The notes below the pieces were generated by a model. It was not told the origin of the DNA and ran no database searches. It was given only the letters and a program-made list of their open reading frames with translations. Positions 9,116 to 12,431 of a stretch of DNA of 12,461 bases are shown here, in pieces (positions within the stretch are counted from its first letter, which is position 1; every line of letters starts with the position of its first letter). The translations under genes were made by a program, and so were the position numbers. The stretch is taken from positions 1 through 12,461 of the forward strand of contig NZ_CAMPJD010000074.1 in assembly GCF_946886695.1 (NCBI RefSeq), given 5' to 3'. The DNA comes from an uncultured Pseudoxanthomonas sp. (GTDB lineage: Bacteria; Pseudomonadota; Gammaproteobacteria; Xanthomonadales; Xanthomonadaceae).

Positions 9116-11509
9116 TCAGTCCTCCGGCACATCGGGCCGTCCTTCTTCCAGCCGATAGGATAGCCCACCGGCCCGCTGGCGCCGCACGGCATCCCACCAG
9201 CGTGGCCGGTCGTGACGCCGTTCACGCACGCGCAGCCCATCACGACCCAGCCATACGCGCAACGCGCCACCGGACTGCGTGTCAAGTAATTCACCACCCC
9301 GTGACTGCCAGCGAGCCACCACCTGGGCCCGCGGATGCCCGAAGCGGTTGCCTGCCCCGCTCGAATTCACGACGAGCCGGGGCGACGTGGCGGCCACGAA
9401 TGCCGGATCGGAGGACCCGGCACTGCCGTGATGCGGCAGCACGACGACCTCCGACCTGAGCGAGCCCGCATCACGGTGGACCAGTCCACGCTCGACGATG
9501 GCGCCGATGTCCCCCGGCAGCAGGACGCCCCCATGCGGCGTGTCCACCTTCAGTACGCAGCTCGCCTCGTTGCCCAGGTACGGAAAGTGGAGGCCGGGAT
9601 GCAGGAAGCTGAAGCGCACACCGTCCCACGTCCATGACGCGCCCGCCACGCAAGGCGCCCGCGCCTCCAGCGGGCTGCATGGCGGCGCCAGCACCGCCTG
9701 CACCGGAAAGGCATCGCGGACAGCATCGGCGCCGCCGGCATGATCGTTGTCGGCATGACTGATCACCATCGCGTGCAGGCGCGACACCCCCAGCGCGCGG
9801 AGAGCCGGCACTACGGCCCGCTCGCCCGCATCGAAACCTTCCTCGACGGCAGGCCCTGCATCGAACAGCAAAGCATGGTGTGCAGTGCGCGCCAGCACGG
9901 CCAGCCCTTGTCCCACGTCGACGACCACCAGCTCGACTTCGCCCTCACGCGGCAACTCGCGATCCGGCCACAGCAATGGCAGCCACAGCAGCAGCGCCAG
10001 CGATTTGCCCGGCACACCACGTGGCAACAGCAACCAGAAACCTCCGCCCAGCGCCAGCCAGAGCGCCCAGGCGCGACTTTCGGGCAGCCACCACAACGCA
10101 TAAGGATGTTTCGCCATGGCGTCGAAGAGCACCCAGCTCCACTCGAAGCACGCCGCAGCGGCGCGCCATGCCCACACGCCCGCACCCGCATGCGCCGTTT
10201 CCAGCCCTGTCCCGAGCAAGGACAGCGGCACCACCACCAGGCTCCACCATGGAATTGCAAGCAAGTTGGCCACCGGGCCTGCGAGCGAAGCCTGGCCGAA
10301 CAACACAACGGTAAAGGGCAGCAGGCCTACCGTAGCCACTCCCTGGGCTGGCAGGAACGCCCGCGCCCAATGCTGGGAGACCGGCAGACACCACGCCAAC
10401 CACGCCACACCACCGAAGCTCAGCCAGAAACCCGCCGCCAGCAACGACAAGGGATCGAATACCAGTACCGCCAGCATCGCCAGCGCCAACGTGTCGACCA
10501 GGCGCACGTGCCGCCGCGCCAGCCGCGCCACCACCACCACCGCGATCATCAGCACGGTGCGTACCGTCGGCAGCGCGAAGCCCGCGACCGCGGCGTATCC
10601 CAGTGCGCCGGCCAATGCCCATGCGCCTGCCGCCTGCGGACGCGGGATCTTCCGCGACAGCGCCGGAAACAGCCTCCACAATCCTGCCCCGCAAAGGGCG
10701 CAGAATCCTGCCACGAGCCCCACATGGAATCCGGAGATCGCGATGAGATGGGTCAGTCCCGTGGCACGCAGCACCAGCCAGTCGGCATCATCCAGTCCCC
10801 GCGTGTCTCCCAGCGCCAGCGCCTGTACGAAACGCGCCGACCGACCTCGCATCGCATGTCCCATCCTGTCGGCCATGTCGCTGCGCCACGCATCAACACC
10901 CCTACCCGGCGACAGCCGGCGCGCATGCGCGGCATTGCGCACATAGCCCATCGCACTGATGCGCTGCGCCGCGGCATGGCGTTCGGCATCCACGCCGCCG
11001 GGATTGGCCAGTCCGCGGGGCGCTCGCACGCGAACCTCGAACTGCCAACGCTCGCCGGCACCCAACTGCGTGCGCGGCCCCGGCTCCGTCGCACCGAAAT
11101 CGTCGTACCACGCCAACCTGACCTGCCTGCCACGCAGTGCCGCGGGTTGCTGTTCCGTCTCGTCGATGCGCAGCAGGAAGCGGGTTCGCCGCGCTTGCGG
11201 GTCCGGCAGGCCAACCACCTGTCCGCTCACCAGTACGTCGCGCCCTTCCCATGCCACCGGCAGCTGCGCACCGAGGCTCCATGCCGCATTCAGCCCTGCC
11301 CACCCGATGCCGGCCAGCGCGGCGCCAAGCCAACGCCAGCGGGAAGGCCAAAACCACCCGCCGAGCCCGAGCACGAGTGCGCCCCACAGGATCGCCATCC
11401 CCGGCAGCGCAGGATGCCAGAGCATGATGACCATGCCGAGCACCAAGGCCGCCGCGCACGCCAGCCCGAACGGCGGCAACGGCAGCTTCCGCATGCGCGA
11501 CGGCTCCAT
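9116..11509 (-). CDS. comEC: ComEC/Rec2 DNA internalization channel protein
   Basis: ComEC carries single-stranded DNA across the inner membrane during natural transformation. The 797-residue product has the full family layout. Residues 1-80 hold hydrophobic helices. About 90-200 is a DUF4131 OB-fold-like region. About 225-510 is the multi-helix Competence domain with the AISGFHVG motif (257-264). The C-terminal metallo-beta-lactamase domain (from about 525) has VVDVGQG, HADNDHAGG (H585, D587, D589, H590), PGDIG (D667) and LPHHGS (691-696). Metal ligands and length are intact, so it looks functional. Two starts compete: ATG 11509, one base after the intI stop, or ATG 11494, which has GGAG nine bases upstream and would give 792 residues. 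The frame extends to 11587 only inside intI. Uptake ability also needs pilus and ComEA genes, which are not in view. Confidence 0.95.
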   Translation of the reverse strand: MEPSRMRKLPLPPFGLACAAALVLGMVIMLWHPALPGMAILWGALVLGLGGWFWPSRWRWLGAALAGIGWAGLNAAWSLGAQLPVAWEGRDVLVSGQVVGLPDPQARRTRFLLRIDETEQQPAALRGRQVRLAWYDDFGATEPGPRTQLGAGERWQFEVRVRAPRGLANPGGVDAERHAAAQRISAMGYVRNAAHARRLSPGRGVDAWRSDMADRMGHAMRGRSARFVQALALGDTRGLDDADWLVLRATGLTHLIAISGFHVGLVAGFCALCGAGLWRLFPALSRKIPRPQAAGAWALAGALGYAAVAGFALPTVRTVLMIAVVVVARLARRHVRLVDTLALAMLAVLVFDPLSLLAAGFWLSFGGVAWLAWCLPVSQHWARAFLPAQGVATVGLLPFTVVLFGQASLAGPVANLLAIPWWSLVVVPLSLLGTGLETAHAGAGVWAWRAAAACFEWSWVLFDAMAKHPYALWWLPESRAWALWLALGGGFWLLLPRGVPGKSLALLLWLPLLWPDRELPREGEVELVVVDVGQGLAVLARTAHHALLFDAGPAVEEGFDAGERAVVPALRALGVSRLHAMVISHADNDHAGGADAVRDAFPVQAVLAPPCSPLEARAPCVAGASWTWDGVRFSFLHPGLHFPYLGNEASCVLKVDTPHGGVLLPGDIGAIVERGLVHRDAGSLRSEVVVLPHHGSAGSSDPAFVAATSPRLVVNSSGAGNRFGHPRAQVVARWQSRGGELLDTQSGGALRVWLGRDGLRVRERRHDRPRWWDAVRRQRAGGLSYRLEEGRPDVPED
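9120..9125 (-). promoter_or_regulatory. Strong ribosome binding site that fixes the exbB GTG start
   Basis: On the minus strand GGAGGA occupies 9125-9120, six bases before the GTG at 9113, inside the last codons of comEC. It is the best Shine-Dalgarno I noticed in the window and supports the GTG start over the longer reading frame that begins inside comEC. Confidence 0.75.
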
Positions 11510-11510
11510 G

Positions 11511-12431
11511 TCAGCGATCCAGTGGACTGAGCACCGCACCAGCGCCCCGGTTGAGGACGTGCGTGTAGATCTGGGTGGTCGCGACATCCTTGTGCCCGAG
11601 CAATTCCTGCACGGTACGGATGTCGTAGCCGCTTTCGATCAGATGGGTGGCGAACGAGTGGCGCAGCGTGTGCGCGGTGACCGGCTTGGTGATGCCCGCC
11701 GCGATCCGTGCACGCTTGAGTGCCCGCGCCAGCATCGCCTCGTCCAGGTGATGCCGTCGCCATCGCTCATCCCTCGGGTCCAGACTGAGGTTCCGCGCAG
11801 GAAACACATACTGCCACCCGAGTTCGCGCCCTGCACCCGGGTACTTGCGCGAAAGCGCATGCGGCAACCAGACCTCTCCCGCACCCTGCGCAAGATCCTG
11901 CTGGTGCAGGACGTGAACACGCTCCACCTCCGCCTGCAACGCAGGCACCAGCGATGCGGGCAGGACCGTCCGGCGGTCCTTGCCACCCTTGCCCTCGCGT
12001 ACCGTGATCTCGTTGCGGGCGAAGTCGACATCCTTAACACGCACGCGAATGCCTTCCATCAATCGCATGCCGCTGCCATACAGCAGCCGCGCAAGCAGCG
12101 CCATGCGCCCATCCATGTGGGCCAGCAACGCGCGAACCTCCGACTGCGACAGTACCGTGGGAACACGCAACGGCCGCTTGGCACGCACCACATCGTCCAT
12201 CCACGCAAGTTTCAGGCCCAGGACCTCGCGATACAGGAACAGCAACGCGGACAGCGCCTGGTTCTGCGTACTCGCCGCCACCCTGCCTTTGACCGCCAGG
12301 TCCGTCAGGAACGCCTCGACCTGCGCCACCCCGAGCTCGCGCGGATGACGCTTGTCGTTGGCCAGAATGAATCGCCGGATCCACCCCAGGTAAGCCCGCT
12401 CGGTACGCAAGCTGTAATGACCAACGCGCAA
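11511..12431 (-). CDS. intI: Integron integrase (IntI), 5' end disrupted or incomplete
   Basis: This tyrosine recombinase is of the integron type, which recombines attC cassette sites with attI. The readable 306 residues (numbered from the TTG at 12431) start HYSLRTERAY, typical of IntI but normally preceded by some further residues. Catalytic residues are R123, K148, H254, R257 (HTLRHSFATHL), H280 (LLGHKD) and nucleophile Y289 (codon 11567-11565). The IntI-specific insertion is present at about 187-212 (ALSRKYPGAG, GWQYVFPA), which separates it from XerC/XerD. It ends GAGAVLSPLDR and stops one base before comEC. The N-terminus is lost: upstream bases form a perfect inverted copy of codons 2-10 and bring an in-frame TGA at 12446-12444. 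The TTG start is therefore only where reading remains possible. attI and cassettes would lie beyond the window. Confidence 0.93.
   Translation of the reverse strand: MRVGHYSLRTERAYLGWIRRFILANDKRHPRELGVAQVEAFLTDLAVKGRVAASTQNQALSALLFLYREVLGLKLAWMDDVVRAKRPLRVPTVLSQSEVRALLAHMDGRMALLARLLYGSGMRLMEGIRVRVKDVDFARNEITVREGKGGKDRRTVLPASLVPALQAEVERVHVLHQQDLAQGAGEVWLPHALSRKYPGAGRELGWQYVFPARNLSLDPRDERWRRHHLDEAMLARALKRARIAAGITKPVTAHTLRHSFATHLIESGYDIRTVQELLGHKDVATTQIYTHVLNRGAGAVLSPLDR

What the first reader, a model, noticed from the sequence alone, without database searches (positions are those of the whole stretch)
9116..12431. Integron integrase gene placed one base upstream of comEC
The stop of an IntI-type recombinase (11511-11513) is separated by a single base from an ATG of comEC. 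In Xanthomonas, the integron integrase I know of is next to ilvD, and I recall comEC heading the exbBD-lipid A block without intI. Here a gene that captures DNA cassettes and the gene for the channel that imports single-stranded DNA may share one transcript. Cassette recombination uses single-stranded attC, so joint expression would be biologically sensible. Chance insertion of an integron at this site is the simpler alternative.
Basis: partly seen in the sequence, partly recalled or inferred. Interest (0 to 1): 0.72.

Follow-up and report, generated by a model that had tools for sequence, protein, structure and literature searches.

The report
Integron integrase translationally coupled to comEC
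In several genera of Xanthomonas-like bacteria, the gene for the enzyme that stitches captured genes into the chromosome lies directly in front of, and almost touches, the gene for the channel that imports foreign DNA, an arrangement kept in dozens of species although the enzyme itself has been swapped, which suggests that the two are made together.

Summary
Observation confirmed. intI (minus strand, stop 11511-11513) is followed after one base by the comEC start. The intI 5' end is cut off: the window's last 21 bases (12441-12461) are a foldback artefact, so any cassettes lie off the contig.

It is no one-off. Among all held genomes of four genera (118), 91 have intI, and in 37 of these it sits directly 5' of comEC; one genome of a fifth genus adds to this. 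In the five relatives where I reached the far side, lolD lies beyond the integron, which holds up to dozens of attC sites. In 37 of 37 readable junctions a comEC-frame start codon lies within 8 nt of the intI stop; 14 of 14 Luteimonas-type junctions have a 4-nt overlap (ATGA/GTGA). At other sites intI mostly faces a convergent gene (55 of 75 loci).

The junction type follows the comEC tree better than the intI tree, and the two trees conflict. G319 is a mosaic; G295 keeps intI only as an in-frame leader of comEC. Best reading: a sedentary integron whose integrase is translationally coupled to the DNA-import channel. Co-expression and any benefit for cassette capture are inferred. My literature searches found no report of it.

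The parts
11511..12440 (-). intI, integron integrase, 3' part; roughly its first 25-30 codons lie beyond the contig end
   Evidence: TIGR02249 470.9 bits vs cutoff 265; 99% identical to the G303 copy over 306 residues; alignment with G303 up to 12440 (by eye)
11507..11513 (-). junction TGA-C-ATG: intI stop, one base, comEC start
   Evidence: sequence; nearest start at +1 in 13 of 37 relatives' junctions, at -8, -4, -1, +2, +3 or +8 in the others
9116..11509 (-). comEC, inner-membrane channel for single-stranded DNA in natural transformation (function from the family)
   Evidence: TIGR00361 317.5 bits vs 190.05
8454..9113 (-). exbB/tolQ-like gene; likely GTG start 2 nt after the comEC stop
   Evidence: TIGR02796 and TIGR02797, both below their curated cutoffs; sequence
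8022..8444 (-). exbD/tolR-like gene
   Evidence: TIGR02801, below its curated cutoff; ORF
6271..8025 (-). msbA, lipid A exporter; ORF overlaps the exbD end by 4 nt
   Evidence: TIGR02203 786.5 vs 602; coordinates
5252..6274 (-). lpxK; ORF overlaps the msbA end by 4 nt
   Evidence: TIGR00682 234.2 vs 91.95; coordinates
4451..5215 (-). kdsB
   Evidence: TIGR00466 275.5 vs 155.2; coordinates
12403..12461 (.). perfect inverted repeat at the contig end; bases 12441-12461 are a foldback artefact, seeded by a natural 7-bp palindrome
   Evidence: divergence from G303 after 12440 (by eye)

Best explanation
This is the integrase end of a sedentary chromosomal integron inserted upstream of comEC, between lolD and comEC where the far side could be seen. 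SHOWN: intI is followed in tandem by comEC, exbB, exbD, msbA and lpxK; a comEC start codon overlaps or nearly touches the intI stop in every readable relative; attC sites lie on the other side of intI; the stop/start arrangement follows comEC descent better than intI descent, and the two genes have conflicting trees. INFERRED: both genes are translated from one mRNA by termination-reinitiation, so that integrase synthesis also yields ComEC. The insertion cut the comEC run off from lolCD, intI became its leader, and tight coupling then kept comEC, and perhaps the lipid A genes, expressed. Incoming integron DNA recombines within intI or the flanks and replaces the integrase and its cassettes but keeps the junction. 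A consequence, not shown: cells making the channel for single-stranded DNA also make the enzyme that recombines single-stranded attC sites.
For: Adjacency, k of intI-positive genomes: g1 (Pseudoxanthomonas-type) 17 of 26 (38 genomes); g28 (Luteimonas-type) 14 of 40 (52); g11 4 of 16 (17); g14 2 of 9 (11); plus G013 of g13. Start within -8..+8 nt of the intI stop in 37 of 37, ATG in 24 of 37; in six further windows of that width ATG occurs in 3-12 of 37. 14 of 14 g28 junctions have a -4 start. Elsewhere: 55 of 75 loci convergent; 1 of the 20 tandem loci has a start in that window with the frame open. Junction class needs 8 changes on the ComEC tree (least possible 6) and 12 on the IntI tree; the IntI data reject the ComEC topology (delta lnL 532, p-AU 6e-38). 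G319: intI body closest to mexicana-type copies, comEC closest to G336. G295: in-frame internal deletion leaving a 73-codon leader whose stop overlaps the comEC ATG, with 5 strong and 2 weak attC matches left. Shine-Dalgarno strength at the junction start: median -3.1 kcal/mol, 3 of 37 at -6 or below; best nearby candidate -4.8 (11 of 37) against -6.65 (39 of 60) where intI is absent from the site. No terminator-like site in L116:8800-10700.
Against: No expression data. A promoter inside intI cannot be excluded. Some start codon (ATG, GTG or TTG) occurs in 17-28 of 37 further windows, so 37 of 37 alone is a modest excess, and I took the start nearest the stop; the ATG share and the uniform -4 class carry more weight. 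The genomes are related, so counts are not independent. kdsB and lolC also have weak Shine-Dalgarno signals, and the two comEC sets were not matched by relatedness. G295 is one genome, and an in-frame deletion has a one-in-three chance. G293 has a frameshifted intI before comEC, in an assembly rated 57% complete. The AU test used 5000 replicates (the program asks for 10000) and two topologies, and several g28 ComEC rows held only the first ~440-500 residues.
Confidence: 0.72

Rival explanations
1. Adjacency without co-regulation: comEC and the lipid A genes are read from their own promoter inside intI, and intI is merely parked upstream.
For: lolC-lolD are kilobases away in array-bearing genomes such as G303 and G265, and the downstream lipid A genes, essential in related bacteria (general knowledge), must be expressed somehow. 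The consensus scan would miss weak or other promoter types.
Against: Tight stop/start spacing kept while intI is exchanged, weak comEC Shine-Dalgarno signals, in-frame leader kept in G295, no promoter-like match pointing at comEC in L116:8800-10700.
Confidence: 0.3
2. Repeated independent insertion: integrons have settled several times at the same place before comEC, and coupling arose each time.
For: On the 90-row IntI tree the comEC label needs 9 changes, at least 5 of them forced by well supported branches. Relatives such as G219 and G140 have intI elsewhere and lolD next to comEC.
Against: All 14 junctions with -4 overlap are one clade on the ComEC tree, while the junction classes need more changes on the IntI tree. 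G319 shows intI replaced at a resident junction. Independent hits within 8 nt of one start codon look improbable (inference).
Confidence: 0.25
3. Assembly chimera or misjoin at 11400-11650.
For: The same contig ends in a foldback artefact.
Against: The artefact is ~930 bases away, and the arrangement is found in other assemblies, among them the one-contig genomes G303, G118, G254, G252, G014 and G313.
Confidence: 0.01

Closest known systems
Xanthomonas chromosomal integron at ilvD (PMC12444791; outline, abstract and passages seen)
   Same: Sedentary integron of the same bacterial family, at one conserved chromosomal site, largely vertical with some intI replacement
   Different: There intI is downstream of ilvD, and the main text has no word beginning 'come' and no Pseudoxanthomonas. 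Here intI lies 5' of comEC in tandem, touching or overlapping its start
Vibrio cholerae superintegron and cassette recruitment during natural transformation (review PMC8946536; passages seen)
   Same: Links cassette capture by the integrase to single-stranded DNA entering through ComEC
   Different: The link described there is physiological (SOS and competence induction); the passages seen describe no genomic or translational linkage of intI and comEC
Class 3 integron integrase IntI3 on plasmids
   Same: IntI family; about 56% identical to the window IntI over its length (where the best of the 20 rows listed, from Kovacikia minuta, is 60%)
   Different: Carried by plasmids; here in chromosomes, fixed before comEC

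Membership tests
sedentary chromosomal integron | IntI-type tyrosine recombinase gene | tested here: met
   TIGR02249 470.9 bits vs cutoff 265. Catalytic motifs were only compared by eye with recalled ones
sedentary chromosomal integron | attC sites next to intI | tested here: met
   In relatives only: model R1 finds attC sites upstream of intI in each comEC-type locus that reaches there (one site in G118, arrays elsewhere); a pattern counts 35 in G303 and 39 in the part of G254 read. No match in the window among the 300 rows listed of 476; its contig ends inside intI
sedentary chromosomal integron | attI beside intI and a cassette promoter Pc | tested here: inconclusive
   CCTAAC core in 21 of 36 and Pc-like pattern in 12 of 36 upstream regions; G303 has TTGACG-17-AATACT pointing to the cassettes. 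Not in the window; activity not tested
sedentary chromosomal integron | chromosomal location in fixed synteny | tested here: met
   lolD - integron - comEC in G303, G265, G118, G252 and G413, and with a broken intI in G295. In G254, G313, G159, G013, G336 and G014 lolD was not found in the stretch read
ComEC/Rec2 DNA channel | ComEC_Rec2 match above cutoff | tested here: met
   TIGR00361 317.5 vs 190.05, residues 151-748
translationally coupled operon | overlapping or near-touching stop and start, kept across relatives | tested here: met
   37 of 37 readable junctions, with the background rates
translationally coupled operon | downstream gene depends on upstream translation | not testable with these tools
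   needs reporter or RNA experiments
SOS-controlled integron | LexA box upstream of intI | tested here: not met
   CTGT-N8-ACAG in 0 of 36, CTG-N10-CAG in 2 of 36, a recalled Xanthomonas-type pattern in 1 of 36 upstream regions of 330 nt; other box types not tested

The most novel reading that the evidence does not exclude
A dedicated uptake-and-capture operon: selection keeps intI coupled to comEC so that the enzyme recombining single-stranded attC sites is made together with the channel delivering single-stranded DNA. These integrons would then be collectors of cassettes from free DNA, and the exchanged integrase bodies at a fixed junction would be traces of such transformation.
Probability: 0.35. 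Interest if true: 0.9.

Novelty: new variant of a known kind. Interest (0 to 1): 0.72.

Why it matters
How sedentary integrons collect their cassettes is largely open. A hard-wired link between the integrase and the DNA-import channel, kept across genera while the integrase is swapped, would make the idea that cassettes arrive by transformation directly testable in environmental species. It would also be a case of a mobile-element enzyme becoming the leader of a core operon that includes lipid A genes.

Tried and rejected
Chimera of the window: rejected, the arrangement is in other assemblies. A single recent insertion in one species: rejected. One clade of comEC-type integrases: not supported, 9 changes on the 90-row IntI tree, at least 5 forced by starred branches (quick method, SH-aLRT only); test_one_clade was not run. 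SOS or CRP control: no CTGT-N8-ACAG and no TGTGA-N6-TCACA in 36 upstream regions. intI remnants before comEC: 61 upstream regions examined, only G295 positive. Shine-Dalgarno controls are mixed: medians msbA -9.5, lolD -9.5, exbD -5.6, lolC -4.4, kdsB -3.3. Among the 20 tandem loci elsewhere, one search placed three gene starts within 15 nt of the intI stop; on checking two of these (L058, L076) do not begin with a start codon, being open at the cut end of the stretch, and L110 has a TTG at +15.

Family-wide counts are not complete: searches (241 of 395 genomes with intI; 390 of 395 with comEC) list only their best matches, about 160 each. Full counts are given only for g1, g11, g14 and g28. 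Dropped rows: L070 and L084 (contig ends soon after intI) and the distant second integrases L162 and L163 were left out of the neighbour count; G293 (frameshifted intI) was left out of the junction count; G396 (intI fragment, away from comEC) counts as intI-positive. Genus names for g-codes rest on matching named records by coordinates (e.g. L045 = G267, Luteimonas aestuarii), not on a label of the tool.

Literature: comEC+intI+integron gave 7 papers (passages read in two, one of which matched 'comec' only in a reference's DOI); integron+comEC+lolD gave none; searches showed no title or abstract start on the adjacency. The library holds open-licence papers only.
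Full report
WHAT IS THERE. On the minus strand of the window, intI ends with TGA at 11511-11513 and comEC starts with ATG at 11509, one base later. Both identities pass curated family cutoffs. comEC is followed at short distances or overlaps by exbB, exbD, msbA and lpxK, then kdsB, so intI heads a compact run of genes. The contig ends inside intI: its last 59 bases are a perfect inverted repeat. A near relative, G303, aligns up to 12440 and then continues into the real 5' end of intI (by eye).

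THE INTEGRON IN RELATIVES. G303 has a one-contig genome with IntI 99% identical. Upstream of intI it carries 35 attC sites by pattern over about 17 kb, then lolD and lolC. A covariance model of 19 of its attC sites finds attC upstream of intI in each comEC-type locus given that reaches there; G118 has a single site. Among the 300 rows listed of 476 none lies in the window or in the comEC loci L189 and L190, which lack intI; most of the weaker rows are the opposite strand of sites already listed. The far side was reached in G303, G265, G118, G252 and G413, and in G295 with its broken intI: lolD in each, and in G413 lolD directly precedes intI. In G254, G313, G159, G013, G336 and G014 lolD was not found in the stretch read. 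Without an integron at the site, lolD was found upstream of comEC in 30 of 60 loci, at gaps of about 23 to 1823 nt.

HOW WIDESPREAD. Searches of all held genomes of four genera give comEC-adjacent intI in 17 of 26 intI-positive genomes (38 examined) of g1, 4 of 16 (17) of g11, 2 of 9 (11) of g14 and 14 of 40 (52) of g28: together 37 of 91 intI-positive among 118 genomes (intI cutoff 1e-60). In the other 54 intI is elsewhere or was not seen next to comEC. G013 of g13 makes 38 genomes. Named members include Pseudoxanthomonas mexicana DSM 17121, P. japonensis DSM 17109, P. kalamensis DSM 18571, Luteimonas aestuarii B9 and Lysobacter sp. M2-1. Of the 80 named loci, 12 have comEC next to intI; L070 and L084 are too short downstream to tell. 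None of the loci titled Rhodanobacter, Dyella or Fulvimonas is among the 12.

THE JUNCTION. In 37 of 37 readable junctions a start codon in the comEC frame lies between -8 and +8 nt of the intI stop; taking the nearest, there are seven spacing classes: +1 in 13, -4 in 14, +3 in 3, -8, +2 and +8 in 2 each, -1 in 1. The 14 -4 junctions, ATGA or GTGA, are all 14 of g28. As a control, six windows of the same width further into comEC contain some start codon in 17-28 of 37, but ATG in only 3-12, against 24 of 37 at the junction; the third frame at the junction has a start in 5 of 40. At other genomic sites intI faces a convergent gene in 55 of 75 loci; of the 20 tandem loci one has a start within 8 nt with the frame open (downstream genes were called by a simple codon score, so boundaries are approximate). 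The Shine-Dalgarno signal at the junction start is weak (median -3.1 kcal/mol, 3 of 37 at -6 or below). It is also weaker than where comEC does not follow intI when each is given its best nearby candidate (-4.8 against -6.65). Control genes are mixed.

HOW IT EVOLVED. comEC-type integrases do not form one clade: 9 changes on the 90-row IntI tree, at least 5 forced by well supported branches; a 105-row tree of wider origin gives 8 and 3, and adjacency needs 8 changes on a 46-row ComEC+ExbB tree. IntI and ComEC trees conflict strongly. The spacing class follows ComEC better: the 14 -4 taxa are one clade there, and all classes need 8 changes against 12 on the IntI tree. In G319 most of intI is closer to P. 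mexicana-type copies (about 70-85% against 58-77% to G336), its last ~200 nt do not discriminate, and from the intI end through comEC it is closest to G336, with which it shares the -8 junction. G295 has lost the integrase core by an in-frame internal deletion but keeps a 73-codon leader (L188 9391-9612) whose stop overlaps the comEC ATG at 9602, with attC sites left upstream. I read this as a junction inherited with comEC, at which integrase and cassettes are replaced by recombination. Recurrent settling at one hot spot remains possible for part of the distribution.

MECHANISM. Shown: gene order, stop/start geometry, its persistence and the turnover of intI. Inferred: one message, and reinitiation at comEC after intI termination. 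Speculative: a benefit from making the ssDNA channel and the ssDNA recombinase together. A plainer benefit also fits: once the integron separated comEC and the lipid A genes from lolCD, coupling kept them expressed. The LexA and CRP patterns tried gave almost no match upstream of intI, so what turns the unit on is unknown. The only promoter-like match in L116:8800-10700 points to the cassettes.

LITERATURE. PMC12444791 (outline, abstract, passages) describes intI downstream of ilvD in Xanthomonas and has no comEC. PMC8946536 (passages) reviews cassette recruitment by transformation in V. cholerae. PMC9024848 matched 'comec' only through a DOI in its references. PMC8352920 and PMC11089894 (passages) name Pseudoxanthomonas only for its attC sites. 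The searches showed no report of intI-comEC linkage; for most of those papers I saw the listing only.

Noticed in passing
window 12403-12461: Perfect foldback of two 28-nt arms at the contig end, seeded by a natural 7-bp palindrome inside intI; an artefact that yields a false TTG start.
   Followed up: yes
L188 9391-9612 (G295): intI reduced by an in-frame internal deletion to a 73-codon leader that still overlaps the comEC start, with attC sites left upstream.
   Followed up: partly
L162, L163 (G159, G254) and L260/L281 (G402): Some genomes carry two integron integrases, one at comEC and one elsewhere; L162 and L163 are only 50-52% identical to the window IntI.
   Followed up: no
L050, L060, L061, L062, L111, L114: Another site shared by Lysobacter, Rhodanobacter and Dyella records: intI convergent with a ~1150-1200-aa gene that looks like mfd (recognised by eye, no family search).
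   Followed up: no
L044, L025, L057, L052, L031, L079: In part of the Luteimonas-type genus intI is convergent with a Lrp/AsnC-like regulator gene, followed by a phenylalanine-hydroxylase-like gene (by eye).
   Followed up: no
L117 507-806, 6645-6944, 12346-12645: Near-identical 300-nt stretches (98-100%) repeated three times in the G303 cassette array, as if one cassette had been duplicated.
   Followed up: no
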